A DNA stretch of 64,000 nucleotides from Pannonibacter sp. XCT-53 (GTDB taxonomy: Bacteria > Pseudomonadota > Alphaproteobacteria > Rhizobiales > Stappiaceae), in the NCBI RefSeq assembly GCF_009915765.1, contig NZ_JAABLQ010000001.1:186001-250000 (forward strand), given 5' to 3'. The notes beneath the pieces were generated by a model that did not search any database, was not told the DNA's origin, and worked only from the letters and a program-made list of their open reading frames with translations. Position numbers and translations under genes: made by a program. Each line of letters opens with the position of its first letter. The stretch's first letter is position 1. This document shows, one piece after another, positions 2,939 to 19,601 of this stretch.

Positions 2939-3402
2939 CACCTGCGCTCACCAACACCGGCGCGCTGTTCTCCATCGGGTCGGCGATCCTCTACACGGTC
3001 GGGCTCAACCCGCAGCGGCTGAGCTATGCCAGCGAGGCCCGGTTCCCGGCGCATCCCGTGCAGGGCGGCATCGCATATCAAATCACCGGCGCGGGCCAGG
3101 AGCGGCTGACGATCGAGGCCGTGACATTCCCGCATGTGGTCGGCGGTCTCGATGCCCTGGCGCTGCTCAAAGGGTATCACCGGGCGCAGTCAATCGTCCC
3201 CTATGTGCGCCTGCGCGGCAACTACCTCGGCGAGAGCGGCGGCATGGTGGCGATCGAGACGCTCGATTATGACGAGGAGCGGCTGCACCCGTTCGACGGC
3301 GTCGGCCGCCAGATCGACGTGAGCCTCGGCCTCCTGCTGTTGCCGGCCGACAGCTATCTTGCGCAACCCGGCCGGATCGCGGATCTCGGAGGGCTCATCT
3401 GA
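2935..3402 (+). CDS. Phage tail protein U (P2 gpU family)
   Basis: The 155-residue protein contains the features of the GpU family: an N-terminal LFSIGSAILYTV segment, a W-less RFPAHPVQGG motif where typical GpU proteins have a similar 'rf.a.prigg.p' region, and a C-terminal IDVSLGLLLLPAD strand. GpU is a tail completion/baseplate-proximal protein in contractile-tailed phages. The start ATG overlaps the tape measure stop (ATGA) and its own stop overlaps the start of the next gene, so the operon is tightly coupled. Confidence 0.85.
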   Translation: MTPALTNTGALFSIGSAILYTVGLNPQRLSYASEARFPAHPVQGGIAYQITGAGQERLTIEAVTFPHVVGGLDALALLKGYHRAQSIVPYVRLRGNYLGESGGMVAIETLDYDEERLHPFDGVGRQIDVSLGLLLLPADSYLAQPGRIADLGGLI

Positions 3403-3620
3403 TGCGCTACACCGTGCCCTATGGCGGCAGGCGGCTCGACCAGATCGCACGCGAGACGCTGCGCAGCGAGCGTGGCGGCACGGTTGAGGCGATCCTGACC
3501 GCCAATCCGGGCCTCGCAACCCTGCTCGATGGCGCAACGGTGCCGGCCGGCACGTCGATCGAGATCCCCGAAACCTACCGCCCGGCTAAAAGCGGCCGGC
3601 GCGTGCTGGCCTGGGAGTAA
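3402..3620 (+). CDS. Phage tail protein X (LysM-like)
   Basis: The 72-residue protein has the small LysM-like fold of the P2 gpX family: an early RYTVPYGGRRLDQIA segment, a VEAILTANPGLA helix and an AGTSIEIPE strand. In P2-like phages gpX sits between U and D and helps assemble the baseplate hub. The ATG overlaps the stop of gpU (TGATG). Length and neighbours agree with the family. Confidence 0.85.
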   Translation: MRYTVPYGGRRLDQIARETLRSERGGTVEAILTANPGLATLLDGATVPAGTSIEIPETYRPAKSGRRVLAWE

Positions 3621-3623
3621 GCG

Positions 3624-4613
3624 ATGCAGCGACCCGTCGTCCACGTCATCGGAGCCATGAGCGGCAACCTCGTCCCCGGCTGGGGACCTGCGCTGCGGGC
3701 TGTCCGCTACACGGACAACGAGGGCGCGGATGCCGACGAGATCGAGATCGAGTTCTCGGTCGACGGCCCCGGCGCGTCCCGGCCGGCCTCCGGCACCAGC
3801 TACCGGCTGCTCTATGGCTGGGATGAGGCAGGCCTGCGCGATGCCGGCTCGTTCACGGTCCAGTCGTCGTCGCTGAGCTACGCACCGGACGATGGCTGGA
3901 CGCTGACCGTCGTCGCCCGGTCGGCGGATTTTCTCGACGCCGACAAGGCGGGTGAAACAGCGCATTTCGACGAGCAGACGGTCGGCGAGATCATGCAACG
4001 CCTCGCCGGGTCGGCCGGCAAATCCGCGCGGGTGCATCCTGCGCTGGCCAATATCAAACTGCCCTATCGGCTCAACTGGGGGCAATCACCGCTCGGCTTT
4101 GCCCAGGCGCTGGCCGACGAGATCGGCGGCAGCCTCAAACCCGCAAACGGGCAATGGCAGGTGACAAAAAAGAACAGCGGCCAGACCGCTGGCGGCACGC
4201 CGCTGCCGCCGCTGGTCATCCCGCCCGAGCGTGTCACCGGCTGCGAGATCACCGAGGAGGAGCGGCCGAAATTCGGCCAGGCGCAACAGCCCTGGTTCGA
4301 CCCGGAGGCCGGGCTGTCGCAATTGGCCAGTGCCGCCGGCATCGGCAAGGCCGCGCAGGCGCTGTTGCTGCATCCCGCCGCCTCGGCCGTCGAGGCGGCG
4401 GTCTCGGCCGCTGCGGCTGTCCTCGACCTCGGCCGGGGCTCTGTCAGCGGCTCGGTGACAGCCATCGGCGATCCCGATGCCATGGCCGGTGCGCCGGTGA
4501 TCCTGCCTGGCTACGGCGGCGCGGCGGCAGTCGCCACGTCCATCACCCACGAGTTCACATTCGACGAGGGCGGCGGCTGGTTGATGACCGTCGAGCTCGC
4601 CGCGCAGACCTGA
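3624..4613 (+). CDS. Phage tail hub protein D / late control protein (gpD family)
   Basis: The 329-residue protein matches the P2 gpD family in size, position and sequence style: an N-terminal beta domain with 'DEIEIEFSVDGPG', a central 'ADEIGGSLKPANGQW' insertion and C-terminal strands ending 'TITHEFTFDEGGGW'-like (here SITHEFTFDEGGGWLMTVEL). gpD is the gp27-like baseplate hub that mounts on the tail tube. It begins 3 nt after gpX and closes the recognisable P2-type tail block. Confidence 0.85.
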   Translation: MQRPVVHVIGAMSGNLVPGWGPALRAVRYTDNEGADADEIEIEFSVDGPGASRPASGTSYRLLYGWDEAGLRDAGSFTVQSSSLSYAPDDGWTLTVVARSADFLDADKAGETAHFDEQTVGEIMQRLAGSAGKSARVHPALANIKLPYRLNWGQSPLGFAQALADEIGGSLKPANGQWQVTKKNSGQTAGGTPLPPLVIPPERVTGCEITEEERPKFGQAQQPWFDPEAGLSQLASAAGIGKAAQALLLHPAASAVEAAVSAAAAVLDLGRGSVSGSVTAIGDPDAMAGAPVILPGYGGAAAVATSITHEFTFDEGGGWLMTVELAAQT

Positions 4614-4622
4614 GAGACCATC

Positions 4623-6965
4623 ATGACCGAGAGATTTTCGACAACCGCCGCCGCCGCCATCTCGCCGCCCTGGAGCCCCTCCGGCGACGTCGTGTTGCAG
4701 GCAGATTGCGCCGACCCGCGCGCGCTGGTGGACATTGAGGGGCGCGTCAACGACGCGGCACCGTGGCTGCCGCTGGTGACATTGTCGCGGCAGGGCCAGC
4801 GCCAGGCGCGGCTGGCGCGCATGCCCCAGATGCGCGTGTCGGTCCGGGAGAACGGTGCCGGCCAGGCCGTCCGCGTGTTCGAGGAGGTTGCGCTGACGTC
4901 GGTGGCGGCGACAAACGTCGTCGGCAAATTCCGCGAGGCGTTCGAGACGTTCTCGGGCGAGCGATGGCAGCTCGACCTCGCGGCTGGCGACATCGTCACC
5001 GTCGACGGCAATGCGATCAGCGCCAGTTATCTCGTTGTCTCGAAGGACCCGCTGAGCTCCGGCACCGAGACCGTTGTCACCGGCCGGACCCTGTTCACGA
5101 TGCCGTACGATCTGGCGTATGGACTGCACATGTCGCAGCGTGCCGTGGGCCTGGAGGCCGCGATCGAGGTTGTGTCGGATGAGGCCCCGCTCCCCGAAGC
5201 GCCTGATCTGCCGATTGCGTCGATCAGCCAGGCCGGCACGGTGCTGACGATCACGACGACGGTGCCGCACGGGCTCGTGCCGGGCAAACGCATCGGCATT
5301 TGCGATGTCGCAGACAGCCGCCTCAACTATGCGGGGCTGGTTGTTGCAACTGCGCCGACCGCGACCACGCTGACGGTGACCGCCGGCGTCATGGGCACGT
5401 TGCCGTCCCTGACGGCCGGGCCGCTCACGGGCGGCTCGGTCTATCAGCGGCCGGGCATGGGGCGAGCCCAGAACGGTGTCGCTCTGGTCTACGAAGGGGC
5501 ATCTCAGACCTCCGCGTCCGTTTACCTGCGCAGTGCCAGCGGAGACCTGTTGCCGTCCGGGACGGTCAACGGTGACCAGCGCATCACGACTGGCAGCACG
5601 ACGTCTCAGGCGCCGATCAACGCTGCCCGGACCTATGCGTTCCTGCCGTCTGTCGAGACGCGCATTGTCGCTCGCGTGGACAGCGTCCAGATCTCGGATG
5701 TCGGTGCTGACAGCTCGTCGCAGGCCGCCAATCGGTCGCGCCGGTCCCAGGTCATCCCGGACGAGACGCGGAACTACAAGGTCCGCCTGCGGGCACATAC
5801 CAACAAGTCGCACACCCGGCCGGTCGCGCAGATCGTCAGCGCCGTGAAATCGGGCAGCGCGACAGCGACGATCGTGACCGATCAGCCGCATGGGCTCAAC
5901 GCCAGCAGTCAGGTCGTGATCCTGGGCATTGCAGATGCCGTCAATTTCCCGGCGCTGGCCGCCCCGACGACTGTCGCCAGCGTTGTCAACAGCACCACCT
6001 TCACGGTTGCAATCGGGGCGTCCGCGACTGCAACGTCGCACGGTGGCTATGTTGCGCTGGCGCAGGGTGGGCAGGGTCAGGCCGGCGGTGTGGCTCAGTC
6101 GATCATCTCGGTCGCCAGGGCCGAGAATGTCGTGACGCTGACGGGCTCCGCGAGTTGGTCCGGCCTGGTGCACGGAGACTATGTCAATGTGGTCGGGTGC
6201 CGGCGCACCACCGCCCCGCTCGGAGCGTCGGTCGGCGTCGACGGAGCGTATAGGGTCCGGGAGATCAATGGCGCGACGCTGATCCTCGAGCAGATCAATG
6301 CCGATGTCTCGCCGGGCGGCGGTGACATTTCCGCGATCGCATGCGGTGGCGCAGTGATCAAACGCAGCGATGTCCGGCTGTCGTTCCTGCGGCTGATTGA
6401 TTTCGAGCGTCTGCGCGTCGAGGCGCTGCCTCGGCCAGGCGGTGACAGCAGCGATGCATTTCCGGTCACGTGCCAGAGTGGTTCTGTCGCAGTGGCCGGG
6501 ACAGTCGCTGAGGACGCGAGCGCGGGCTCTGTTAACCCCGTCCAGATCGGCGTGCGGGCTCGCTCCAGCAACCCCTCGCCCATGTCCGCATCCGGTGACG
6601 CGGTCCATGCGCTGGCCACGATGATCGGGGCGTTGGTCGTCAAACCCTATTCCATCGCCGATGCCGAGTGGTCCATGTCCATCGCGTTGACGTCCACCAC
6701 GGCTCAGACGATCCAGGGTGCGGCCGGGTCGGGTCTCCGGCGTCATCTGACGGCAATTCAGGCCATCAACACCGGCGCAGCTTCGGTCGACCTGATCATT
6801 CTCGACGGCACGACCGAGAGATGGCGCATGCCTCTCCCGGTCAACGTGCCGGTGTCGGTGCAGCTGCCGACGGGGCTGCAGGTCAGCACCAACACCGCGC
6901 TCAACGTCAACCTCGGGGCTGCCGGCACCGTCCGGTTCAACGCCCAGGGCTACACTGCAACCTAA
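4623..6965 (+). CDS. Large phage tail/baseplate-associated structural protein of unknown exact role
   Basis: The 780-residue protein follows gpD by 9 nt. Residues 1-110 resemble an Ig-like or FN3-like beta domain. The rest is Thr/Ser/Val/Ala-rich beta sequence. At least three copies of a module with a 'PHGL' or 'VHGD' turn followed by a short V-x-G-x-x-D/A-x-x-N element can be seen (about residues 215-265, 420-475 and 500-560), which is common in tail fibre and baseplate decoration proteins. The C-terminal 110 residues form a further beta domain. No peptidase or glycosidase motif was seen. It could be a tail fibre, a tip attachment protein or an adhesion module. The start is ATG 4623 with GAGAGACC upstream. 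Confidence 0.65.
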   Translation: MTERFSTTAAAAISPPWSPSGDVVLQADCADPRALVDIEGRVNDAAPWLPLVTLSRQGQRQARLARMPQMRVSVRENGAGQAVRVFEEVALTSVAATNVVGKFREAFETFSGERWQLDLAAGDIVTVDGNAISASYLVVSKDPLSSGTETVVTGRTLFTMPYDLAYGLHMSQRAVGLEAAIEVVSDEAPLPEAPDLPIASISQAGTVLTITTTVPHGLVPGKRIGICDVADSRLNYAGLVVATAPTATTLTVTAGVMGTLPSLTAGPLTGGSVYQRPGMGRAQNGVALVYEGASQTSASVYLRSASGDLLPSGTVNGDQRITTGSTTSQAPINAARTYAFLPSVETRIVARVDSVQISDVGADSSSQAANRSRRSQVIPDETRNYKVRLRAHTNKSHTRPVAQIVSAVKSGSATATIVTDQPHGLNASSQVVILGIADAVNFPALAAPTTVASVVNSTTFTVAIGASATATSHGGYVALAQGGQGQAGGVAQSIISVARAENVVTLTGSASWSGLVHGDYVNVVGCRRTTAPLGASVGVDGAYRVREINGATLILEQINADVSPGGGDISAIACGGAVIKRSDVRLSFLRLIDFERLRVEALPRPGGDSSDAFPVTCQSGSVAVAGTVAEDASAGSVNPVQIGVRARSSNPSPMSASGDAVHALATMIGALVVKPYSIADAEWSMSIALTSTTAQTIQGAAGSGLRRHLTAIQAINTGAASVDLIILDGTTERWRMPLPVNVPVSVQLPTGLQVSTNTALNVNLGAAGTVRFNAQGYTAT

Positions 6966-6983
6966 CGGCCGAGGAGAACGCCG

Positions 6984-7199
6984 ATGATTACCTTGCTGAT
7001 CCATTCCACCGAGTTTCGCCCCGGCCGCCTGCCGGACCCCGAGGAGCCTGGCGACACGGGCCGGCCGGATACCTGGTACGTGCGGTTTGAATGGGCCGAC
7101 CACGCCGGGACCCGGTCCAGTGATGTGGTGCTGGAGGGGCTGCCTGAGAGCGCCAGCAGCCAGGAGATCTACGACGCCGTGATGGCGACGATCAGCTAA
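6984..7199 (+). CDS. Small phage protein of unknown function
   Basis: The 71-residue acidic protein is preceded by a good ribosome binding site (GAGGAG, 7 nt from the ATG) and follows the large tail gene by 18 nt on the same strand, so it is probably the last gene of the tail operon. The sequence has a short beta pattern (TWYVRFEWADHAG) and an acidic C-terminal helix. It is not recognised; a tail fibre accessory role is only positional inference. Confidence 0.5.
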   Translation: MITLLIHSTEFRPGRLPDPEEPGDTGRPDTWYVRFEWADHAGTRSSDVVLEGLPESASSQEIYDAVMATIS

Positions 7200-7339
7200 C
7201 CGCGACGGGCGGTCCGGGCCGCGCCAACGGCCCGAACGGCGGGGACCATTCGCAGGCTCCGCCCGGCAGACCGATCAGGATCACCGCCGCACCCGCTGCT
7301 CGCGCGAGCGCCGGCAGTGTGGCTGAGTCGTCCGGTTAT

Positions 7340-9301: not shown

Positions 9302-9348
9302 GATGGTAGCGGAGGAGGGACTCGAACCCCCGACACGCGGATTATGAT
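9302..9348. repeat. attL: 47-bp direct repeat of the tRNA-Met 3' half
   Basis: These 47 bases are identical to 19555-19601. They start at the bases that flank the CCA end and stop in the anticodon loop, after which the sequence diverges. This is a tRNA fragment left by site-specific integration, not a functional tRNA. A short inverted repeat (GCGCAC at 9352-9357, GTGCGC at 9364-9369) lies just inside. Confidence 0.92.
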
Positions 9349-9393
9349 GCAGCGCACAACCCTGTGCGCGCAATACTTTAAGCCCCGAAATAC

Positions 9394-9443
9394 TGTCAAA
9401 CCCGGTACGGAAAATCAATGGCTTAGCCGGGCTTTGTCAAACC
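9394..9443 (+). repeat. TGTCAAACC direct repeats near attL (candidate integrase arm sites)
   Basis: TGTCAAACC occurs at 9394-9402 and 9435-9443, inside the left end of the island, and again at 19471-19479 near the right end, with a related palindrome CGTCAAACTTGACG at 19493-19506. Repeats near both ends of an integrated element are typical of integrase or excisionase arm-binding sites. The second copy runs into AAACCGGTTT, a small palindrome. Confidence 0.45.
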
Positions 9444-9474
9444 GGTTTGCGCCCCTTTCGGCAAGGGGGGCGGC

Positions 9475-10281
9475 ATGACAAACGTGCTCCCTCTCCGGCG
9501 CGAACGCGGTCCTTCCGCCGTGCATACAATCCAGTACAGCGACAAGTTGGCTTGGATCGGCAAGGTCGCAACGGACCTTGAGCTGACCCCGTCTGATCTG
9601 CGGATAGCTGTTGTCCTGTCCGGCTATATCAACACACAGGACGGTCGCGCCTGGCCGTCGCACGCCACCCTTGCCAAGGTCACGGGCCTGAACGAGCGGA
9701 CGGTGACACGCGGCCTGAAGGCGCTGGTGGCGCGTGGCTACCTGTCGCTTGAGAAGGGGAGCGGTCGCGGGAGCTGCAATGTCTACACGTTCCAGCCGGT
9801 CGATGCGGATGTTGCACCGCTGCCGACTGATGGCCCTGCCCCTGTCGAGGCACTGGAAAAGGGTGACAAAAGTTACCGTGAACCCGAACGAAAGGGTGAC
9901 AAAAGCTACCGTGAAAGGGTGACAAATCCTGCCGGAAAGGGTGACAAAAACAGCCCCCTAACTAGAATAAATAATATAAATAAAAAAACCAAAGGCGCGG
10001 GCACGCGCGAGGCCATGCCGGAACGCTGCAGGCCAGTACCTGGACCTTCCAAGCCGAAGCCGCTTCCCGAGCCGAAAGCGCGCTTCGTCGCCACTGACGA
10101 TCCGCGCTATCCGACGCTTGCGGCCATTCACGAACGGATCCGCAAAAGGCCGCCGTTCGTTATCGAGGCCAACTTCGGGCCGGGTGGCAAGGCTGGATAC
10201 TCGTTCGCTCTGGACATCTTCGACGAATTCGACCGGCAGGCGTCTGCGGCGCTGCCCGATGGCTGGGAAGGGGTGAACTGA
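9475..10281 (+). CDS. Replication initiator with N-terminal winged helix (lambda O-like)
   Basis: The 268-residue protein starts at ATG 9475 after AAGGGGGG. Residues 20-105 form a winged helix-turn-helix of the HTH_36/O-protein type (LAWIGKVATDLELTPSD, WPSHATLAKVTGLNERTV, ALVARGYLSLEKG). A flexible middle follows, encoded by DNA that carries four iterons and an AT-rich stretch, then a C-terminal part of about 90 residues ending FALDIFDEFDRQ. Lambda O is built the same way: an N-terminal origin-binding domain with the origin inside the gene. It probably starts replication of the excised island and recruits host helicase. The stop overlaps the HNH start (TGATG). Confidence 0.75.
   Translation: MTNVLPLRRERGPSAVHTIQYSDKLAWIGKVATDLELTPSDLRIAVVLSGYINTQDGRAWPSHATLAKVTGLNERTVTRGLKALVARGYLSLEKGSGRGSCNVYTFQPVDADVAPLPTDGPAPVEALEKGDKSYREPERKGDKSYRERVTNPAGKGDKNSPLTRINNINKKTKGAGTREAMPERCRPVPGPSKPKPLPEPKARFVATDDPRYPTLAAIHERIRKRPPFVIEANFGPGGKAGYSFALDIFDEFDRQASAALPDGWEGVN
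9858..9993 (+). other. Candidate replication origin: four iterons and an AT-rich region inside the initiator gene
   Basis: AAAGGGTGACAAA occurs at 9858, 9891, 9914 and 9936; start-to-start distances are 33, 23 and 22 bp, near whole helical turns. Copies 1 and 2 extend further in common (through ACCGTGAA). Copies 1, 2 and 4 are read as KGDK but copy 3 is read in another frame as ERVTN, so the DNA word rather than the peptide is conserved. A stretch of about 35 bp that is almost all A/T (9959-9993) follows, like the unwinding element of the lambda origin. Confidence 0.75.
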
Positions 10282-10724
10282 TGCCCGGCTGGCCGTACAA
10301 CACCCGCGCATGGAAGCGGCTGCGGCTGGTGAAGCTGTCGGCAAGCCCCGTCTGCGAAGTGTGCGCCCGGCGCGGCGTGGTCGAGGCCGCGCGCGTGGTT
10401 GACCACAACACCGCGATCAACGCCGGAGGCGATCCGTTCCCGCCGCTCGACGGTCTGACCGCCATGTGCGTCCCGTGTCACAACAGCAAAACCGCAGCCG
10501 TTGACCGCAAGACCGCGCTGCCCTTTGCCCGCCGCATCAAGGGCTTTGACGCGGACGGAAACCCGCTCGATGACACGGACGAGTGGCACACCGGGGGCGG
10601 GGGCGGGCAAAATCACCAGAACGGCAAAGCCCGAATACCGACTGGGAACCAGAACTTCCACTTAGTTTCGTCCAGAAAATTGGATGAAACCTCTGATAAC
10701 GTTGACGATTTGGGGTTTGCCTGA
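10281..10724 (+). CDS. HNH endonuclease (phage packaging type)
   Basis: The 147-residue protein has a CxxC pair (C25, C28), the HNH core D41-H42-N43, and a second CVPCHNSK motif (C63, C66, H67, N68), making a zinc-stabilised HNH nuclease. In HK97-like cos phages and in capsid-forming satellites an HNH protein next to the terminase is needed for cos cutting. It begins at the initiator stop and ends 1 nt before terL, so the three genes form one operon. The last 45 residues are Gly/Asn/Ser-rich and look disordered. Confidence 0.85.
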   Translation: MPGWPYNTRAWKRLRLVKLSASPVCEVCARRGVVEAARVVDHNTAINAGGDPFPPLDGLTAMCVPCHNSKTAAVDRKTALPFARRIKGFDADGNPLDDTDEWHTGGGGGQNHQNGKARIPTGNQNFHLVSSRKLDETSDNVDDLGFA

Positions 10725-12356
10725 ATGGCTGTCCGGGGCATAGGGGCCAAGCCGCTTTCGGAGCGCGGCAAGATCGAGGTTCGGACCGTGAAGCCCTGGG
10801 AGGAACCGGGGCTGACGCGGGCGGGGCGCGTCATCGCGTTCCTCGAGGATCTGCCGATCACGGCGGGAAGCCTCGCCGGGACGACGATGAAAATCCGCCC
10901 CTGGCAGCGCGCGTTCCTTGAGGAAGTCTATGCCGAAGACGAGACCGGGCGGCGTCCGGTCCGGACGGCGGTGCTGTCCATGGGCCGCAAGAACGGCAAG
11001 ACGCAGCTGGCCGCCGGGCTGGCGCTGTGTCACCTGATGGGGCCGGAAGCCGAACCGCGTGGCGAGGTGTATTCGGCGGCGCTGACACGCGATCAGGCCG
11101 CGAAACTTTTTCAAGAGATGACCGCGATCCTGCAAGCGCATCCAGAGCTGGACGACCGGGCGAACGTGATCCGTCACAGCAAGCAAGTGGAAGTGCTCTT
11201 TGGCGATGGCGCGGGCTCGATCTATGCCGCCCTGTCGGCGGATGCCGGATCGAAGATGGGGTTGAGCCCGTCCTTCGTGGTCTATGACGAGCTTGGCAGC
11301 GCGCCGAACCGTGACCTGTTCGACGCGCTGGATACGGCCACCGGCGCGCGCGACAACCCGCTGATGATGTGCATTTCAACGCAGGCGGCGGCGGACCATC
11401 ACGTGTTTTCCGAATTGATCGACTACGGGCTGAAGGTGCAGGCGGGCGATGTGGACGACCCCTCGTTTCACCTGACGCTCTATGCCGCGCCGGCTGATGC
11501 CGATCCTTGGGAGGCGGAGACCTGGGAGGCGGCAAATCCGGCGCTTGGCGACTTCCGCAGCCTCGATGATGTGACCCGGCAGGCGGCACAGGCGCGCCTG
11601 GTGCCGTCGAAGGAATCCGCCTTTCGCAATTTGATCCTCAATCAGCGGGTGGCCGCCGTGTCGCGGTTTATCCATAAGGTCGAATGGGAGAAGTGCAGCG
11701 CCGCGCCGGACTTGGCCGCCTTGCGCGGCCGCACGTGTTTCGGCGGCCTCGACCTGTCAGCCGGGCGCGACTTGACGGCGTTCGTTCTGGTGTTTCCCGG
11801 CGAAGGGCGCATGTTTGACGTGGTGCCGAAGTTCTACTTCCCCGAGGCGGCGGTGAAGGAACGCTCCGAAGAGGATCGTGTCCCGTATGACCTGTGGGCG
11901 CGGCAAGGCTTCATCACGCTCATTCCTGGCGCGACGATTGATCCCGGCTTTGTCGCCCATGAGCTTGCCGAGGCTGCGAGCCTCTATGACTTGCAGAAAC
12001 TCGCCTATGACCGCTGGCGCATCGAAGACCTGCGGCGCGAGCTGAGCCTGTTGGGCGCAGGGTTGCCGCTGGAGCCCTTCGGTCAGGGCTTCCGTGACAT
12101 GGCCCCTGCGGTGGACCTTCTGGAACGCTGCGTGGCGGAAGGCTTGCTGCGACACGGTGGCAACCCGGTGCTGAAGATGTGTGCGACGAACGCTGTGGTC
12201 ACGCGCGATCCGGCGGGAAATCGCAAGCTGGACAAGTCGAAGGCAAACGGGCGGATTGACGGCCTGGTGGCGCTCGCCATGGCGTTGGCAGTCAGCGGGC
12301 GGCAGGAGGAGGAACCTCTCCCGGCGTGTCTGGCGCAGTTTTTGGATGACGGGTGA
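10725..12356 (+). CDS. Terminase large subunit
   Basis: The 543-residue protein is a full-length Terminase_1 (HK97-type) large subunit. The ATPase has Walker A SMGRKNGKT at residues 85-93 and Walker B FVVYDELG at about 185-192. The nuclease half starts at FGGLDLSAGRDLTAF and has a late Asp in NGRIDGLVALAMAL. It powers DNA packaging into the capsid. It directly follows the HNH gene; the small subunit usually found between them is absent. Having its own terminase means the island can package itself and need not redirect a helper terminase. Confidence 0.92.
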   Translation: MAVRGIGAKPLSERGKIEVRTVKPWEEPGLTRAGRVIAFLEDLPITAGSLAGTTMKIRPWQRAFLEEVYAEDETGRRPVRTAVLSMGRKNGKTQLAAGLALCHLMGPEAEPRGEVYSAALTRDQAAKLFQEMTAILQAHPELDDRANVIRHSKQVEVLFGDGAGSIYAALSADAGSKMGLSPSFVVYDELGSAPNRDLFDALDTATGARDNPLMMCISTQAAADHHVFSELIDYGLKVQAGDVDDPSFHLTLYAAPADADPWEAETWEAANPALGDFRSLDDVTRQAAQARLVPSKESAFRNLILNQRVAAVSRFIHKVEWEKCSAAPDLAALRGRTCFGGLDLSAGRDLTAFVLVFPGEGRMFDVVPKFYFPEAAVKERSEEDRVPYDLWARQGFITLIPGATIDPGFVAHELAEAASLYDLQKLAYDRWRIEDLRRELSLLGAGLPLEPFGQGFRDMAPAVDLLERCVAEGLLRHGGNPVLKMCATNAVVTRDPAGNRKLDKSKANGRIDGLVALAMALAVSGRQEEEPLPACLAQFLDDG

Positions 12357-12371
12357 CACCATGTCACCCGT
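12349..12371. terminator. Symmetric hairpin between convergent terL and cargo gene
   Basis: A 10-bp perfect stem (ACGGGTGACA / TGTCACCCGT) with a 3-nt CCA loop contains the stop codons of both converging genes. It could be a bidirectional terminator, although no T run follows on either strand. The arm includes GGGTGACA, the core of the iteron, so it may also be a binding site for the initiator. Confidence 0.45.
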
Positions 12372-13110
12372 GTGTTTGCGGTTCAGCTGCTATGCGTTCG
12401 ATGATCGGAAACGTCTTATCTTTAAGCAGATTTTGAAGACACAGCCCCATTTCGGTTGCGATTGCGGCGCCGGAAGATAGTTCCGAATTTACGCAAGAAG
12501 AGATGTCGTTGAAAAATTTTGCTAGCGCATCGGATCTAGCCATTATTTCTACAAATTGCGGGTGTGAAGCATTAATATTCCAAGCTTCTCTTTGTGAGTC
12601 GAATTGATTGCTCATAACTAGAGGCATTAAGAAATCCCTTTCTTGATAGTATTCAATTGCCGATTCAATAATTGAATTGTACCTTCTTTCAAATTCCTCG
12701 ATCTTAGATAGAAGATCCGGTCTTTTTGCATCAATAAAAACACTATAGTCACTTGAATCAATGGAAGTTATCATTCTTTGAAGGCCGGGAATTTTATGGG
12801 AGTATCCCCAAATTTCTGAATCCAGCTTGCTTTCTTGATGTCTTTTTATTGCATCTGTTGAAGCGTTCTGAAGATGTATGAGCCAGCTCAACATTTGACT
12901 GATCCTCAGAGTAATTCTATGCGCCTTCAATATTCTGTCCATTTTCACTGTTTTATTTAATATCATCCTTGAAGACCAGTATTGCCCAATGGCCGCAAGC
13001 AACCCTCCAAAAAATACCGATAGTACTCCGCTATAATTTTCTTTGAGAAAAGATGCTGACATAAAGTAAAGATCAGAGAAAAATGAATAAAATTGATCTA
13101 ATTCCATCAT
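12364..13110 (-). CDS. AT-rich membrane-anchored cargo protein of unknown function
   Basis: The 248-residue protein is much more AT-rich than everything around it, a sign of recent transfer. One membrane helix is visible at about residues 26-48 (YSGVLSVFFGGLLAAIGQYW), followed by a long charged helical cytoplasmic domain with aromatic residues and no recognised catalytic motif. It lies downstream of the Xre repressor on the same strand, so it is likely expressed while the island is integrated. Satellites often carry defence or conversion genes at such a site; an anti-phage or superinfection-exclusion role is possible but is inference only. Confidence 0.6.
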   Translation of the reverse strand: MMELDQFYSFFSDLYFMSASFLKENYSGVLSVFFGGLLAAIGQYWSSRMILNKTVKMDRILKAHRITLRISQMLSWLIHLQNASTDAIKRHQESKLDSEIWGYSHKIPGLQRMITSIDSSDYSVFIDAKRPDLLSKIEEFERRYNSIIESAIEYYQERDFLMPLVMSNQFDSQREAWNINASHPQFVEIMARSDALAKFFNDISSCVNSELSSGAAIATEMGLCLQNLLKDKTFPIIERIAAEPQTHG

Positions 13111-13192
13111 TGAATCTCCGGGTTCTATTCTGGGGTCGGTGGCCAGATTTAGGATTGCAATTATGGCTTTAGAGTCCTCTAGCGTGTTAAGT

Positions 13193-13417
13193 TCAGGACT
13201 TCCTCAGTCGCACACCCGGACCTTCCCCGTTTTCGTCGATGAAGATCACGCCTGCAGTTTCGAGGGCGGCGCGGATCGCGTCAACCGTGCGTGGCTTAAG
13301 TTCGTCGCCACGCTCTAGGCGTGAGATGGTGTTTGTTGACACATTCGCCAGCGTAGCAAGGTCTCTGACCGATAAGTCTAGCGCCACCCGGGCCATCTTG
13401 CATTGAATAGCATTCAT
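13193..13417 (-). CDS. Xre/Cro-family repressor
   Basis: The 74-residue protein is a single helix-turn-helix domain: RMARVALDLS-like first helix (KMARVALDLSVRDLATLANV), recognition helix STNTISRLERG, and a C-terminal 'GVIFIDENGEGPGVRLR' tail common in alphaproteobacterial phage regulators. It is divergent from the plus-strand genes starting at 13515, across a 97-bp region with repeated CGATTTCGC and GCAACACT words. It probably controls the switch between integrated and induced states. The cargo gene 82 bp downstream may share its transcript. Confidence 0.8.
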   Translation of the reverse strand: MNAIQCKMARVALDLSVRDLATLANVSTNTISRLERGDELKPRTVDAIRAALETAGVIFIDENGEGPGVRLRKS

Positions 13418-13514
13418 CGCAACACTGTCTCGATTTCGCGTTGACGAAGCGAAATAGCGCGGCTATTTTCGCAACGAAGTTTCGATTTCGCAACACTATC
13501 ACAGGAGCAACGCG
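13418..13514. promoter_or_regulatory. Divergent control region with repeated operator-like words
   Basis: CGATTTCGC occurs at 13431-13439 and 13483-13491, GCAACACT at 13419-13426 and 13490-13497. Between them is a near-palindrome, GCGAAATAGC (13449-13458) facing GCTATTTTCGC (13462-13472). The region separates the Xre repressor from the divergent plus-strand genes, so these are candidate repressor operators. AGGAG before 13515 serves as ribosome binding site. Confidence 0.5.
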
Positions 13515-13874
13515 ATGGGCCATCCCTTGCGCGAACGGTCGAACCTTGTCCCGCTCTGGCTCACCATCGAGCCGGAGACGCGCCGCCGCATCGAGCAGGC
13601 GGCGGAACAGTTGATTGCCCTGCTCGATATCATCGACGGCGACCCGGACCTTGAGCCCGCGTTGGGCTGGCCGGAAGAAGGGCCGGACGCCTGTGTCCGT
13701 CATGGCCTCACGGACGAGGAGGAACCGTCCCTGGGCTGGCCGGAGGTGCAGCGCTGGGGCGCGCCGCTGTCCTGGCGCGCCCATGCCACCAATGACAATC
13801 ACCATGATTGCGAGATCGACGAGGACGAGGAAGACGACCTCGACCCGGACGCCAATGAGACCGACGAGGAGTGA
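13515..13874 (+). CDS. Hypothetical acidic island protein
   Basis: The 119-residue protein is the first gene to the right of the operator region. Residues 15-45 are helical (PLWLTIEPETRRRIEQAAEQLIALLDIIDGDPDLEP). Two GWPE segments follow, and the last 25 residues are almost all Asp/Glu (EIDEDEEDDLDPD). Small proteins with this 'ALLD-x-x-DGDPDLE' pattern are common in alphaproteobacterial phages and islands, with no known role. The acidic tail could bind basic proteins or mimic DNA. RBS AGGAG lies 5-10 nt before the ATG. Confidence 0.6.
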   Translation: MGHPLRERSNLVPLWLTIEPETRRRIEQAAEQLIALLDIIDGDPDLEPALGWPEEGPDACVRHGLTDEEEPSLGWPEVQRWGAPLSWRAHATNDNHHDCEIDEDEEDDLDPDANETDEE

Positions 13875-13879
13875 AGCCA

Positions 13880-14137
13880 ATGACCGATGCCACCAACGAC
13901 CAAAACGAGGCCAGAGGGCCGCGCCACCGGATCGACGCTTTCGTTGATGCCGAAGGTCACTGCATTGATTTGTCGGGCCTGCTGGAGGCTTTTGCGCTGC
14001 TGGCGGACGGGCTCGACAGTCCCCGCGCGGGCGCGCTTCAGGCCATCGTCACCGCCTGCCGCGACAAGCTGGTGTTGATCGAGGCGGCGCTTGACGTAGC
14101 AAGGCAGGAAGCGTTCCGCGAGTTCAAGCGGCATTGA
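13880..14137 (+). CDS. Hypothetical small island protein
   Basis: The 85-residue protein has a helical C-terminal half (LLEAFALLADGLDSPRAGA, then two further helices ending in ARQEAFREFKRH) after a short beta hairpin (RIDAFVDAEGHCIDLSG). It is not recognised. The ATG at 13880 has GAGGAG 9-14 nt upstream; a GTG at 13871 overlaps the previous stop and is less likely. It forms a two-gene unit with the acidic protein. Confidence 0.5.
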   Translation: MTDATNDQNEARGPRHRIDAFVDAEGHCIDLSGLLEAFALLADGLDSPRAGALQAIVTACRDKLVLIEAALDVARQEAFREFKRH

Positions 14138-14218
14138 TAGCCGTTAGCGCTGGGGAAACTGCGGCACGCTGATCGCTATCCGTGTTTTGTCGTTGACATA
14201 ACTCGCGCTCCAGTTCAG

Positions 14219-14239
14219 CCTATTGAAAATCTCAATAGG
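14219..14239. promoter_or_regulatory. Palindrome overlapping a possible promoter of the MerR-like gene
   Basis: Arms CCTATTGA and TCAATAGG (8 bp) surround a 5-nt centre, 10 nt before the next start codon. A TTGACA at 14193-14198 could be the -35 element, with the palindrome covering the -10 region at a long spacing of about 20 bp, the arrangement used by MerR-type regulators. Confidence 0.45.
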
Positions 14240-14248
14240 AGCGACGAC

Positions 14249-14713
14249 ATGGAAAATCCATATGCAAAACTGAAGTTCCGCGTGAAGGCTGCATGCCGGA
14301 TTGTGGGTATTGATCCGCAGCGTTTCAATGAAGCGGTTGCCGCTGGTCACTATGGCTGCGCCCCCGAAGTGGCTCGTGGTGCAACAAGGTTGATGGACTA
14401 CAACGATCTTGTTGCGCTTTTCTTTTACCGGACGTTCCTGGATCAGGAGTTTCCGCCGCGCCTTGCCGGTCTTTACGCTTGCCGCATTCGCTCTCGACTG
14501 GACGATTTGGCCGAAGACGAAGGCGACGTGATGTTGCTTCGCTACTTCAACAACAGGGGCGAAGTGCTGGTGGAAAACCGGCTTCCCGCGAACCAGCGTC
14601 CGCCGCGCGCCGAAGGTTTGCTGCAGCGGTTTTCTTTCGATGTCGTGGCGGCGCGTCAGGTGCTGGACAAGCTGATTGCCGAGGAGCTGTCGATTATTGG
14701 CGAAGACGATTGA
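14249..14713 (+). CDS. MerR-like winged-helix DNA-binding protein
   Basis: The 154-residue protein has an N-terminal part that follows the MerR pattern: KAACRIVGIDPQRFNEAV as helix-turn-helix, a wing ending in RLMDYNDLVALFFYRTF, and a helix after QEFPPRLAG. The C-terminal half has no recognised effector domain and ends in an acidic helix. It has its own palindromic promoter region and stands just before the capsid operon, so it may activate structural genes, or act as a small-terminase-like DNA binder. These roles are inference; the fold assignment is by pattern only. Confidence 0.55.
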   Translation: MENPYAKLKFRVKAACRIVGIDPQRFNEAVAAGHYGCAPEVARGATRLMDYNDLVALFFYRTFLDQEFPPRLAGLYACRIRSRLDDLAEDEGDVMLLRYFNNRGEVLVENRLPANQRPPRAEGLLQRFSFDVVAARQVLDKLIAEELSIIGEDD

Positions 14714-14915
14714 TCCGGAATTCCCGCGCTACTCATTGAGGCCCTGCCAGCGGGCCAACAGCGACAAGGCCCCCTCCGGGGCGCGGGAGCAGTCCTTGAT
14801 CACGGTCAAGGGGGCCGGGCTGGCGCAAATTGAAAGTACTCTCCGCCAAGATTGTACCGGGTGAAGGTGACGCAAGGGCTGATTGTGGCCAAAATTGGAA
14901 CGAAAGGTGTAGAAA

Positions 14916-16148
14916 ATGCCAACACTTCAGGAACTTTTGTCGCAGCGTGCCGCCAAGGTGACGGAAATCCGGGCCCTGCACGCCAAGGCTGCGCTTGATG
15001 CCGCCGAGGAGCAGCGCTTCAACACGCTCGACGGTGAAATCACCGCGCTTGATACCTCGATTGCCCGCGAAAAGCGGGTTGCCGCGTTTGAGCGCGAGGC
15101 CGAAGGCGGCGAGCGGGTGGACGGCGGCGAGTATGGCCGCGAGGCGCGGGCCTATTCGCTGGCCGCTGCGGTGCAGGGCGCGCTGTCCGGCCGCCTGACG
15201 GGCCGCGAGGCTGAGATTGATGCCGAGCTGAAGCGGGGGCGGGAAAGCCGCTCCGGTGCGTCCGGCATTCACTTGGCGGTGCCAGTCGATGTGCTGCTTG
15301 GCGAGACCCGCAGCCAGACGGTGGGCGCGGGTGCGGCGGGTGGCTTCACGGTGCCGACGACCATTGCCGCCGTTGCGGACCGGTTCCGCCCGGCGCTGAA
15401 GGTCGAGGCCATGGGCGCGACCGTGTTGCGCAATCTGACCGGCTTCCTCGACCTTCCGAACCTTGCTTCCAGCGGTTCCGCGTCCTGGGTGGCCGAGAAT
15501 GGCAATGCGACCCGGTCGGCGGCAGCCTTTGAAAAGGTGTCGATGGGGCCGAAGACGATCACGGCAGAATATCGCCTGTCCCGTCGTCTGATGCTGCAAA
15601 GCGGCGCGGCGATTGAAGACATCCTTCGCCGGGATATTGGCTTCATGCTGGCGCAGGGTCTCGACCGCGCGGCGATTGCTGGCACCGGAACCGGGGCCGA
15701 GCCTCGTGGCCTGCTGGCTACTTCGGGCGTGACCAAAGTCACGACCGCAGCCGCGCTGTCGGACACGACCGCCAACCTCATGGCCGAACTGGAGCGCGAT
15801 GACGTGACCGGCACCACGGCCTTCCTGACCCACCCGAACGTCATGCGCCTTGCGCGGACGCTGAAGGACGGCGAGGGCCATGTGATTCAGATGAATGAGC
15901 TTTTCCACGGCGGCCGGGTTGAAACCTCGACACAGGTGCCGAACGACCTTGGCGCGGGCGATGACAAGTCGGCGCTGATTTATGGCCAGTGGGCGGAACT
16001 GTACCTGGGCTACTGGTCTGCGGTCGACATCCTGATCAACCCTTATCACCCGGACGTCGCCTCCAACGGCGGCGCGCTGCTTCATGCCTTCCTCGATGCG
16101 GACGTTGCCGTCCGGCATCCGGAAGCCTTCGCTTACGCGGAGGTGTGA
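14916..16148 (+). CDS. HK97-fold major capsid protein
   Basis: The 410-residue protein has the layout of the HK97 family: an N-terminal helical delta domain (residues 1-120; LQELLSQRAAKVTEIRALH, then IAREKRVAAFERE), which acts as scaffold and is expected to be cut by the prohead protease, and the capsid fold from about residue 135 (GGFTVPTTIAAVADRFRP, WVAENGNATRS, LSRRLMLQSGAAIEDILRRDI, GTGTGAEPRGLL). It is full length. The 202-nt gap upstream has no recognised gene and probably holds the promoter; RBS is AAAGGTG. Order capsid-connector-protease-portal is reversed compared with HK97. Confidence 0.92.
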   Translation: MPTLQELLSQRAAKVTEIRALHAKAALDAAEEQRFNTLDGEITALDTSIAREKRVAAFEREAEGGERVDGGEYGREARAYSLAAAVQGALSGRLTGREAEIDAELKRGRESRSGASGIHLAVPVDVLLGETRSQTVGAGAAGGFTVPTTIAAVADRFRPALKVEAMGATVLRNLTGFLDLPNLASSGSASWVAENGNATRSAAAFEKVSMGPKTITAEYRLSRRLMLQSGAAIEDILRRDIGFMLAQGLDRAAIAGTGTGAEPRGLLATSGVTKVTTAAALSDTTANLMAELERDDVTGTTAFLTHPNVMRLARTLKDGEGHVIQMNELFHGGRVETSTQVPNDLGAGDDKSALIYGQWAELYLGYWSAVDILINPYHPDVASNGGALLHAFLDADVAVRHPEAFAYAEV

Positions 16149-16150
16149 GC

Positions 16151-16423
16151 ATGGTCACGCTCGACGAGGCGAAGGCGCATAGCAGGATCGAAGGCACCTA
16201 TGACGACGCTGTCGTTGCGCAGGCTGTCGCGGCGGCGGGCGATCACCTGAAGTCGGTTGGCGTCGATATCGACGCCAGCCCCCTGCCGCCAGCCGTCAAA
16301 CAGGCTTGGCTGTTGCTGTTTGGCCATTTTTACGAGAATCGCGAGGCAACGGGCAAGGACTCCTTCCCGATTGCCTTTGGCGTTGATCGCCTGATCGCGC
16401 CTTATCGGAGGCTCGGGGTATGA
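16151..16423 (+). CDS. Head-tail connector (gp6-like)
   Basis: The 90-residue all-helical protein fits the HK97 gp6-like connector/adaptor family: VTLDEAKAHSRIEGTYDDAVV at the start, a second helix 'AVAAAGDHLKSVGV' and PPAVKQAWLLLFGHFYENREA. It forms a ring under the portal and joins head to tail. It is the only neck gene in the island, so the satellite seems to make heads with a neck onto which helper tails can dock. The ATG is 2 nt after the capsid stop and the stop overlaps the protease start. Confidence 0.85.
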   Translation: MVTLDEAKAHSRIEGTYDDAVVAQAVAAAGDHLKSVGVDIDASPLPPAVKQAWLLLFGHFYENREATGKDSFPIAFGVDRLIAPYRRLGV

Positions 16424-16959: not shown

Positions 16960-18170
16960 GCCTTCTAGACCGTCTGTTTGGCCGTGAGAAACGCGCCGCC
17001 GTCCGCTCCGATGACGCCTATCTGGCCGGATTTTTCGGCCAGCGCGCGGGCCTTGGCGCGGCTGTGGATCCGGCGCGGGCCAGCGGGCTTTCTGTTGCCC
17101 ATGCCTGTGTCAGCAGCATCTGCCAGAACCTGGCGGCGGTTCCGTTGAACCTGTACCGGCGCGCCGAGGATGGCGGACGTGAGCGGGCTTCTGATCATCC
17201 GCTCTATGGCGTGCTCCATGACATGGCGAACCCGAACATGACCGCCTTTGAAGCCCGTGAAGTGCTGATGGCGTCTGTCCTGATCACCGGCAATGCCTTC
17301 GCGCGGATTGAATGGAACGGGCGCGGCCAAGTGGCGGCGCTGTGGCCGATTGATCCGGGCTCGGTCGCGGTCGAGCGGTTGCCGTCCGGGCGGCTTCGCT
17401 ACCGTGTCAGCACGGGCGCGGCATCCAGCGAGGTGCTGTTGCAAGACGAGATGCTGCATTTGCGCTATCGCCTCGACCGCAGCGGCGTCATGGGCTTGTC
17501 GCCCATTGCCATTGCCCGCGAAACCTTCGCGCTGGCGCTTCAGCAACAGGAAACCGCCGCGAAACAGGCGGCGAACAGCTTCAAGCCTGAAGGCGCGCTG
17601 GTCTTTCCCTCGCCTATTGCAGGCCAGCAGCGGCAACAGGTGCTTGACCAGCTTGAGGCGAAGATCAACGCGACCAACGGCACGCGCGGCGTGCTGGTTC
17701 TGGATGGCGGCACCGACTGGAAAAGCTTCAGCTTTTCCGCGCGCGATGCCGAGTTTCTGGAAAGCCGCAAGCTGACCAATCTTGATATCTGCCGCGTGTG
17801 GGGCGTGCCGCCAACCGTGGTCGGCATCACCGATCACGCGACCTACAGTAATACGGATCAAGAAAGCCGCGCGCTCGTCGTGCGCTGCCTGGCGCCCATG
17901 GCCAAGCGGATCGAACAGGCCATGAATGCCGCCCTTCTGACGGCCGACGCGCGCAAAAGCCTGTTCATTGAACACGACCTGGCCGGGCTGTTGCGTGGCG
18001 ATATGGCGGCCAGATACGCGGCTTATGCCGTTGGGCGGAACGGCGGTTGGCTGTCTGTGAACGAAGTTCGGGCATGGGAAAACCTGCCCAAGATCGACGG
18101 CGGCGACGATTACTTATCGCCCTTGAACATGACGGCGGCGGGTGCCGAACAAGGGGAGCGGGGCGAATGA
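16956..18170 (+). CDS. HK97 family portal protein
   Basis: The 404-residue protein is a full-length HK97-type portal. Family segments include SVAHACVSSICQNLAAVPLNLYRR, the VLITGNAFARIEWNGRG strand region, ALWPIDPGSVAVE, and WGVPPTVVGITDHATYSNTDQ. The portal ring is the DNA entry channel at one capsid vertex and the docking site for terminase and connector. It overlaps the protease (ATGA) and the excisionase-like gene, so the head genes and the recombination genes may share a transcript. Confidence 0.92.
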   Translation: MSLLDRLFGREKRAAVRSDDAYLAGFFGQRAGLGAAVDPARASGLSVAHACVSSICQNLAAVPLNLYRRAEDGGRERASDHPLYGVLHDMANPNMTAFEAREVLMASVLITGNAFARIEWNGRGQVAALWPIDPGSVAVERLPSGRLRYRVSTGAASSEVLLQDEMLHLRYRLDRSGVMGLSPIAIARETFALALQQQETAAKQAANSFKPEGALVFPSPIAGQQRQQVLDQLEAKINATNGTRGVLVLDGGTDWKSFSFSARDAEFLESRKLTNLDICRVWGVPPTVVGITDHATYSNTDQESRALVVRCLAPMAKRIEQAMNAALLTADARKSLFIEHDLAGLLRGDMAARYAAYAVGRNGGWLSVNEVRAWENLPKIDGGDDYLSPLNMTAAGAEQGERGE

Positions 18171-18403
18171 ATCGCGCGGTCATCGAAGTGAAAGCGAAGC
18201 CGTTTCGCCTTCTGTCTCGCGACGATGCAGCAGCCTATTGCGGCCTGCCGCCGAAGCGTTTCGAGGCGCTGTGTCCTGTCGCGGCGATCCCGCTGCCGAC
18301 CGGCAAGAAGGTGTTCGATGCCCGTGATCTTGACACGTGGATTGACGGCCTGAAGGCCAATGCCACGGACACGGACGCGGACATTCTGGACAAATTGGGG
18401 TGA
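18167..18403 (+). CDS. Excisionase / AlpA-like winged-helix protein
   Basis: The 78-residue protein has the pattern of a small recombination directionality factor: FRLLSRDDAAAYCGLPPKRFEALCPVAAIPLPTGKKVFDARDLDTWID, that is a helix-turn-helix with a wing followed by the 'D-L-D-x-W-I-D' helix seen in AlpA/Xis-type proteins. In PICIs AlpA is an activator and in many islands it promotes excision. It sits directly before the integrase (3-nt gap) and overlaps the portal stop (ATGA). Confidence 0.8.
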   Translation: MNRAVIEVKAKPFRLLSRDDAAAYCGLPPKRFEALCPVAAIPLPTGKKVFDARDLDTWIDGLKANATDTDADILDKLG

Positions 18404-18406
18404 GCG

Positions 18407-19489
18407 ATGAAGGCGGGAAAATGGTGGCCCAAAGGCTTCCGCGTCTGGGTCGACAAAAAGCCGCCGTTCCGGGCGCGATGCCAGCACCGCAAGAGCGGCG
18501 TTATGGTCGACCTGGTGAAGTTCCCGCCCAAGACAGCGGCGTTTTATGCCGAATGCGCCCGACTGGACGCGGCGCACGCGCCGGACACGGTGAAGCCCGG
18601 CACTCTGGCCGCGATCGTTGAAGGCTATCGCGGCAGCCGCGCTTTCCTCGACCTGGCACCGCGCACGCGCGCGGATTACCAGAAAGTCTTCGACTACCTT
18701 CACCCGATCCGCGACACGGAACTGACCCGGTTTACGACGCCTTTCATCGTCAAGCTGCGTGATCGCGCGCACGAAAAGCGGGGCGAGCGGTTCGGAACCT
18801 ATGTCAAAGCTGTGCTGTCTGTCGTGTTCGGATGGGCGCGGGAACGTGGTTTCGTGGCGGACAATCCCGCCAAGGGCGTGAAGGGCGTCAAGCGCCGCAA
18901 GGATCGCCCGGACGCAAATCGGCCCTGGAGCGACAGCGAGCGGGATGCCGTTCTTTCCGCTGCCCCGCCGCACATGCGCCCGGCGCTGGCCGTCATGATG
19001 TTCACCGGCCTTGCGCCTGGCGATGCCTTGAGCCTGCCGCGCGGCTGCTGGCAGGGCGGATCAATCGAAGTCCGGCGCAACAAGACCGGCGTTGCCGTGT
19101 CCTGGCCTGTCATCGCCCCGCTGAAGGCGATCCTTGATGACGCTCCGGCTCATGATGCCCTGACGCTGTGTGCCAACTCTTATGGGCGGCCTTGGACCGC
19201 ATCCGGCTTCCGTGCGAGCTGGCGCACGCTGCGCAGCGATCTGGAAGCGGCCGGGCGCGTGCAACCTCACCTGACCTTGTACGGCCTGCGGCACACCGTG
19301 GCGACCATCCTTCGGGAAGCCGGGCTGGATGAACGCGCCATCGCGGATGCGCTCGGGCAGAAGACGGAAGCCATGGCCCGGCACTACGCCAAGGCCGCGA
19401 ACCTGCGGCGCAAGATGGGCGGCGTTGCCGAGAAATTCGAGACCGAAGTGAACAACCGTCGAACAGGAAGTGTCAAACCGACAGCCTAA
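18407..19489 (+). CDS. Tyrosine recombinase (island integrase)
   Basis: The 360-residue protein has an N-terminal arm-binding part, a SAM-like core-binding domain (residues 60-160) and a catalytic domain. Recognisable are the beta-hairpin Lys (RRNKTG), the second Arg in YGLRHTVA, and the Tyr nucleophile in ARHYAK. Some canonical positions differ: the first catalytic Arg site reads TGLAPGDAL, box II has Tyr instead of His before xxR, and the LGH site reads LGQ. Related integrases in alphaproteobacteria seem to share such changes, so it is probably active. It lies 67 nt from the tRNA-Met attachment site. Confidence 0.9.
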   Translation: MKAGKWWPKGFRVWVDKKPPFRARCQHRKSGVMVDLVKFPPKTAAFYAECARLDAAHAPDTVKPGTLAAIVEGYRGSRAFLDLAPRTRADYQKVFDYLHPIRDTELTRFTTPFIVKLRDRAHEKRGERFGTYVKAVLSVVFGWARERGFVADNPAKGVKGVKRRKDRPDANRPWSDSERDAVLSAAPPHMRPALAVMMFTGLAPGDALSLPRGCWQGGSIEVRRNKTGVAVSWPVIAPLKAILDDAPAHDALTLCANSYGRPWTASGFRASWRTLRSDLEAAGRVQPHLTLYGLRHTVATILREAGLDERAIADALGQKTEAMARHYAKAANLRRKMGGVAEKFETEVNNRRTGSVKPTA

Positions 19490-19507
19490 AAACGTCAAAC
19501 TTGACGT
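19471..19507 (+). repeat. TGTCAAACC repeat and palindrome near attR (candidate arm sites)
   Basis: TGTCAAACC at 19471-19479 matches the two copies inside attL. It is followed by the palindrome ACGTCAA-AC-TTGACGT (19492-19507), which contains the related word GTCAAAC. The first word overlaps the integrase 3' end. Confidence 0.45.
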
Positions 19508-19554
19508 AAAACGAGATTTGTGGAGCGGGAAAGATGATGAAAATCAACTGGATG

Positions 19555-19601
19555 GATGGTAGCGGAGGAGGGACTCGAACCCCCGACACGCGGATTATGA
19601 T
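19555..19601. repeat. attR: 47-bp repeat within tRNA-Met
   Basis: This copy is identical to 9302-9348 and is contained in the intact tRNA-Met gene, from just outside the CCA end to the anticodon loop. Integration here leaves the tRNA whole because the element brings or keeps the same 3' sequence. Confidence 0.92.

What the first reader, a model, noticed from the sequence alone, without database searches (positions are those of the whole stretch)
9858..9993. Lambda-style origin embedded in the satellite's initiator gene
Four copies of AAAGGGTGACAAA at helical-turn spacing are followed by a 35-bp nearly pure A/T stretch, all inside a gene for a winged-helix initiator. One iteron is in a different reading frame, showing that the DNA word is selected. 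Capsid-forming satellites usually have a primase-type module, so a self-contained O-like replicon is notable.
Basis: partly seen in the sequence, partly recalled or inferred. Interest (0 to 1): 0.75.

Follow-up and report, generated by a model that had tools for sequence, protein, structure and literature searches.

The report
Replication origin inside satellite initiator gene
A small virus-like passenger in a marine-type bacterium carries, inside the gene for its own DNA-copying starter protein, the DNA landing sites and easily melted stretch at which copying probably begins; this is the arrangement known from phage lambda, seen here in a capsid-making satellite in which no primase gene could be recognised.

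Summary
Four exact copies of AAAGGGTGACAAA (9858, 9891, 9914, 9936) lie inside a winged-helix initiator gene (9475-10281), the third in another reading frame, followed by the most A/T-rich 34 bp of the window. Codon-preserving shuffles reproduce neither feature. The gene opens a 10.25-kb island (47-bp att repeats at a tRNA-Met gene) with its own terminase, capsid, protease, portal and integrase, but no tail or recognisable primase genes. Six related Stappiaceae islands (11-12 kb, tRNA-integrated) have the same layout: initiator, array spaced mostly about 33, 22 and 23 bp, then A/T stretch. Repeat lags of 22 and 23 bp, not multiples of three, dominate in 32 non-redundant relatives. Searching viral contigs with the DNA word alone (30 hits; reversed control 0) mostly returned genes for the same winged-helix family, and the recognition helix co-varies with the word. 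A relaxase element carries the array without a recognised terminase, so a packaging site is unlikely. Best reading: a lambda-type origin within an O-like initiator gene in a cf-PICI-like satellite. Binding and replication were not tested. The origin type is known; its use in a satellite with no recognisable primase looks like a new variant.

The parts
9302..9348 (.). attL: 47-bp direct repeat of the tRNA-Met 3' end; left border of the island
   Evidence: exact repeat; only two copies of its core in the genome
9475..10281 (+). rep: O-like initiator, 268 aa; winged-helix domain at about residues 20-107, disordered linker 112-187 that holds the origin, small C-terminal domain at about 200-262
   Evidence: Pfam HTH_36 4.6e-10; PHROGs replication initiation / O-like 1e-12 to 6e-10; AlphaFold2 model
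9858..9870 (+). iteron 1, frame 2
   Evidence: exact copy
9891..9903 (+). iteron 2, frame 2
   Evidence: exact copy
9914..9926 (+). iteron 3, frame 1 (reads ERVTN instead of KGDK)
   Evidence: exact copy; frame
9936..9948 (+). iteron 4, frame 2
   Evidence: exact copy
9958..9993 (.). A/T-rich stretch, probable DNA unwinding element
   Evidence: 31/36 A/T, contains the most A/T-rich 34-mer of the window; the same position in relatives
10281..10724 (+). HNH endonuclease (packaging module)
   Evidence: phrog_2323 1.1e-20
10725..12356 (+). terminase large subunit
   Evidence: PF20441, PF03354
12364..13110 (-). unknown gene, 248 aa
   Evidence: ORF; no Pfam or PHROG match
13193..13417 (-). Xre-type regulator
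   Evidence: PF01381 2e-8; conserved in the related islands
13515..13874 (+). unknown gene, 119 aa; parts conserved in related islands
13871..14137 (+). unknown gene, 88 aa
14249..14713 (+). unknown gene, 154 aa
   Evidence: ORF; only a sub-threshold match
14916..16148 (+). HK97-type major capsid protein
   Evidence: PF05065, TIGR01554
16148..16423 (+). head-tail connector
   Evidence: phrog_40, TIGR01560
16420..16959 (+). prohead protease
   Evidence: PF04586
16956..18170 (+). portal protein
   Evidence: PF04860 2.4e-101
18167..18403 (+). small AlpA/excisionase-like protein (tentative)
   Evidence: weak phrog_66 0.041; no Pfam match; conserved next to int
18407..19489 (+). tyrosine integrase
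   Evidence: PF00589, phrog_1
19555..19601 (.). attR: the repeat within the intact tRNA-Met gene (19557-19633, -)

Best explanation
The segment 9858-9993 is the replication origin of a 10.25-kb capsid-forming phage satellite, built like ori-lambda and lying in the linker-coding part of the satellite's O-like initiator gene. The winged-helix N-terminal domain of Rep, probably as dimers, binds four iterons centred on GGGTGACA, arranged over about 90 bp at 3-, 2- and 2-turn spacing, and forms an O-some-like complex that melts the adjacent A/T stretch on its downstream side. The C-terminal domain then recruits the replicative helicase, directly or through a host loader, since no P-like loader is recognised. 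Shown here: the array, its selection as DNA, its conserved geometry, the A/T stretch, the initiator family, the domain layout predicted around a disordered linker, and the satellite context. Inferred: binding, dimerisation, melting, helicase recruitment and actual origin activity.
For: Array and A/T stretch exceed codon-preserving nulls. The initiator matches phage O-like and initiator PHROGs, and lambda O matches phrog_678, 391 and 345, two of which (678, 391) are among the window protein's best hits. The same layout occurs in seven tRNA islands. Lags 22 and 23 stand far above the null in 32 non-redundant relatives: 27 and 43 against null maxima of 16 and 19. The near relative G010 keeps all four iterons and the A/T stretch unchanged, with 3 changes in the array region and all three in spacers. 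The DNA word alone found 30 viral contigs, 26 of them with the array in an ORF scoring E<=2e-6 to the winged-helix model; the reversed word found none. Recognition helix with R[TS] goes with GGTGAC arrays, 17/18 against 5/19, p=3e-5; using only genes found by protein search 8/8 against 5/19, p=6e-4. Iterons of relatives are significant dyads, as in lambda. Lambda's own array sits at codons 116-144, the window's at 127-157. The structural model has a confident winged helix and C-terminal domain around a disordered linker over the origin.
Against: No binding or replication data. The dyad is weak in the window's own iterons (frac 0.097). Direct profile comparison with lambda O is not significant, so kinship with lambda O rests on shared intermediate families. 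Some distant relatives have neither array nor A/T stretch. No P-like helicase loader was recognised. The word-helix association was looked for after the fact and is affected by relatedness.
Confidence: 0.87

Rival explanations
1. The repeats are a protein-level feature: a repetitive KGDK linker peptide or its recent duplication, with no DNA role.
For: Three of the four copies read KGDK, and copies 1 and 2 share 24 of 25 bases, which looks like a duplication.
Against: Copy 3 is in another frame and reads RVTN. Codon permutation keeps the protein and loses the repeat. Lags of 22 and 23 bp are enriched beyond the protein-preserving null. The DNA word finds unrelated-sequence genes of the same family with mixed frames.
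Confidence: 0.02
2. Packaging site: the repeats are terminase-binding (cosB- or pac-like) sites beside the HNH-TerL packaging genes.
For: The array lies about 330 bp upstream of the HNH gene and TerL follows.
Against: The same gene position carries an array in islands with an unrelated terminase and head module and in a relaxase-bearing element where no terminase was recognised. The word co-varies with the Rep recognition helix.
Confidence: 0.04
3. Operator array: Rep, or another regulator, binds the repeats mainly to control transcription of rep and the downstream packaging genes.
For: A promoter-like match GTGACA-16-TAGAAT overlaps iteron 4 and the A/T stretch; origin iterons of plasmids often serve in autoregulation (general knowledge).
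Against: It is one consensus match and shuffles also give some. The single-sided A/T stretch and the array inside the coding region follow origin rather than operator design. A dual role is not excluded.
Confidence: 0.07

Closest known systems
Phage lambda ori within gene O
   Same: Four iterons followed by an A/T stretch of about 40 bp inside the initiator gene at almost the same codons; iterons in mixed frames at 20-24 bp spacing; N-terminal DNA-binding domain, linker, C-terminal domain (PMC5043065, PMC7466680).
   Different: Different iteron word; one 33-bp gap; iteron dyad weak in the window; no recognised P gene; no significant direct similarity to lambda O; carried by a satellite, not a full phage.
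Capsid-forming PICI (cf-PICI)
   Same: Small integrated island with own HNH, TerL, capsid, protease, portal, connector, regulator and integrase, and no tail genes (features as in PMC10690885, PMC13230959).
   Different: 10-12 kb, below the cf-PICI average of 14 kb given in PMC10803314; no TerS recognised in the window island; AlpA only tentative; no recognisable primase; found in Alphaproteobacteria, which are not in the host list of PMC10803314; induction and helper unknown.
PICI pri-rep-ori module
   Same: Island-encoded initiator with iterons and an A/T-rich melting site.
   Different: There the origin lies immediately 3' of rep, with two iteron sets flanking the A/T region and a primase gene or domain (PMC6092414); here there is one set, inside the gene, and no recognisable primase.

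Membership tests
lambda-type (O/ori) replicon | Origin lies inside the initiator gene | tested here: met
   Array and A/T stretch within 9475-10281
lambda-type (O/ori) replicon | Multiple iterons selected as DNA next to one A/T-rich stretch | tested here: met
lambda-type (O/ori) replicon | Iterons are inverted repeats | tested here: inconclusive
   Significant in relatives L004, L005, L007, L011, L019 (0 of 300) and L006 (0.013); window 0.097
lambda-type (O/ori) replicon | Initiator belongs to the O-like families | tested here: met
   phrog_678, 391 and 270; lambda O matches 678 and 391; direct comparison with lambda O not significant
lambda-type (O/ori) replicon | Initiator binds the iterons and melts the A/T stretch | not testable with these tools
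   Needs biochemistry
lambda-type (O/ori) replicon | Partner helicase loader (P) | tested here: not met
   No loader among the island's genes by Pfam or PHROGs
cf-PICI | Island with att repeats and integrase | tested here: met
cf-PICI | Own capsid, protease, portal, connector, HNH and TerL | tested here: met
cf-PICI | Small terminase subunit | tested here: inconclusive
   None recognised in the window island; present in the related island L045
cf-PICI | No tail genes; tails from a helper phage | tested here: inconclusive
   No tail gene recognised in the island; dependence on a helper not testable
cf-PICI | Induction by a helper phage | not testable with these tools
   -
PICI pri-rep-ori | Primase gene or domain and origin 3' of rep with two iteron sets | tested here: not met
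   No primase recognised; single array inside rep; no other cluster of three GGTGAC within 80 bp in the window

The most novel reading that the evidence does not exclude
A family of capsid-forming satellites in Alphaproteobacteria replicates from an O-type origin embedded in the initiator gene, without a primase of its own, and belongs to a large class of mobile-element initiators whose recognition helix predicts the iteron word written in their own gene, so that origin and specificity can be read from one open reading frame.
Probability: 0.55. Interest if true: 0.6.

Novelty: new variant of a known kind. Interest (0 to 1): 0.48.

Why it matters
Phage satellites described so far are reported to carry primases, a Streptomyces pair being the stated exception (PMC10690885). 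A capsid-making satellite family that apparently relies on a lambda-type initiator with the origin inside its gene would be another route to satellite replication, with the host supplying loader and primase. Because the binding site lies within the gene of its binder, site and protein travel together through head-module exchange and between phages, satellites and relaxase elements. The link between recognition helix and iteron word makes origin specificity predictable from sequence and easy to test by domain swaps in laboratory plasmids.

Tried and rejected
Single-protein scan of viral contigs found nothing; an alignment query did. Two family searches failed because of wrong coordinates for the connector. 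A first ORF script ignored strand and stopped with an error; redone. Tandem integration of the left prophage at the same tRNA was considered and rejected: only two att copies exist in the genome. DnaA boxes: none in the island. Helper-origin mimicry: tandem iterons occur nowhere else in the host genome. Sequence search of solved structures gave no meaningful hit; Foldseek against PDB gave only generic winged helices with E above 0.004, among them 4pql and 4pt7, the latter titled 'Structure of initiator'. Direct lambda O comparison was not significant. The L009/L010/L027 initiators show the A/T stretch but no array by the 10-mer test; by eye degenerate units remain.

Full report
Observation. 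The four 13-bp words and the A/T stretch are present as described. Spacing is 33, 23 and 22 bp and the frames are 2, 2, 1, 2. Permuting synonymous codons, which keeps the protein and the codon counts, never gave four exact 13-mers in 5000 trials and never reached the A/T content in 2000. The A/T core is the most A/T-rich 34-mer of the 64 kb.

Context. The gene is the first of an island bounded by a 47-bp direct repeat, 9302-9348 and 19555-19601, the latter within an intact tRNA-Met gene; the genome has only these two copies of its core. Gene order: rep, HNH, TerL, an unknown gene and an Xre regulator on the other strand, three small unknown genes, HK97 capsid, connector, protease, portal, a small AlpA-like gene and integrase. 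No tail, primase, helicase or loader gene was recognised.

Related islands. The window lies in a genome whose congeners include a Pannonibacter record, and its relatives are Stappia, Labrenzia and Pseudovibrio. Six islands with related Rep, 11.1-11.8 kb, sit at the 3' ends of tRNA-Phe, tRNA-Met or tRNA-Ser genes. The G010 island has the same head module as the window. Three sampled others (L045, L046, L047) carry an unrelated one, with phrog_15 TerL and phrog_4523 fused protease-capsid, plus phrog_21 portal in the two where that gene was scanned. The Xre regulator is detected in all of them, and AlpA-like and integrase genes in those whose right end was in the compared stretch and similar enough, which excludes the Pseudovibrio island. 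Rep and its embedded array therefore belong to the backbone, not to the packaging module. A further relative, L042, has the array beside a MobA/VirD2-type relaxase, with no terminase recognised among the neighbours scanned.

DNA-level selection. In 32 non-redundant initiators the strongest self-similarity lags are 22 and 23 bp (27 and 43 counts, null maxima 16 and 19); lags 33 and 45, which keep the frame, are matched by the protein-preserving null. A 22- or 23-bp step cannot come from in-frame peptide repeats. Between the window and its 91-93% identical relative, the array and A/T stretch show three changes in 135 bp, all in spacers; this is consistent with constraint but too few to prove it.

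Independent recovery. Searching viral contigs for two copies of the word, with no protein information, gave 30 contigs; the reversed word gave none. In 26 of the 30 the array lies in an ORF that matches the winged-helix model at E<=2e-6; in the other four the ORF taken was short or gave no match. Spacings of 21-23 and 30-38 bp predominate, though one group has steps of 11-12 bp, and copies fall in mixed frames. Within the 87 genomes of the family the exact tandem word occurs only in the window island and in G010.

Specificity. After dereplication, initiators with at least two GGTGAC sites in the linker have R[TS] in the recognition helix in 17 of 18 cases, the others in 5 of 19 (Fisher p=3e-5). 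Because ten of the first group had been found by the word itself, I repeated it with protein-found genes only: 8/8 against 5/19, p=6e-4. The motif was chosen after looking, and relatedness is not corrected for. Units of relatives are dyads, for example GTGACACCGGTGTCAC in L007 and GGACAGATCTGTCC in L011, as lambda iterons are; the window's own dyad is weak (0.097).

Comparison with lambda. Fetched as a control, lambda O has its iterons at codons 116-144 with spacing 20, 24, 23 in mixed frames, followed by an A-rich stretch; the window has codons 127-157. The literature states that ori-lambda lies within O, that its 19-bp inverted repeats bind O dimers, and that a neighbouring 40-bp A+T region is opened (PMC5043065; also PMC7466680). 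The window Rep and lambda O match shared PHROGs, but direct comparison is not significant. The predicted structure gives two confident domains joined by a disordered linker, residues 112-187, which is the part that encodes the origin: such a linker tolerates sequence dictated by DNA needs (inference).

Comparison with satellites. Gram-negative PICIs have the origin 3' of rep with two iteron sets around the A/T region (PMC6092414). cf-PICIs carry capsid and packaging genes (PMC10690885, PMC13230959), average 14 kb and are reported mainly from other lineages (PMC10803314). [quoted passage not shown] The original cf-PICI paper was not in the library, so the replication modules of cf-PICIs at large were not checked. 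The present family works like a cf-PICI; membership is not fully shown, since TerS, AlpA, helper and induction are open.

Verdict. A lambda-type origin inside an O-like initiator gene of a capsid-forming satellite: well supported by comparative sequence evidence, untested by experiment. The origin design is known and widespread; the combination with a satellite lacking a recognisable primase, and the readable helix-word link, are the parts worth following.

Noticed in passing
window 9302-19601 and loci L044-L048, L085-L090: Stappiaceae islands share a Rep-Xre-(AlpA-like)-Int backbone but carry at least two unrelated head and terminase modules, suggesting exchange of whole capsid modules on a satellite backbone.
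   Followed up: partly
window attL/attR and L085: The window island sits at tRNA-Met and its close relative in G010 at tRNA-Phe although their integrases are 94% identical; the two att repeats share CGACACGCGGATT.
   Followed up: no
window 1-7200 and L034: A contractile-tail prophage module (sheath, baseplate, tape measure, gpU- and gpD-like proteins) abuts the island on the left, with no copy of the island's att repeat at its far side; a possible tail donor.
   Followed up: partly
L042 / L092 (G037): The same initiator and array type occurs beside a MobA/VirD2-type relaxase, pointing to an integrative mobilisable element.
   Followed up: partly
L002 (G000:C1:2353034-2356237): A second winged-helix gene of the same genome has five ACGGGTGTCA-like repeats (codon null 0/40).
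   Followed up: no
L044 12938-13807: The G010 island carries an IS transposase gene between TerL and the Xre regulator.
   Followed up: no
L103, L108, L112, L114, L116, L120, L122, L123: One group of viral contigs has the same word at 11-12 bp steps, about one helical turn, in a shorter initiator.
   Followed up: no
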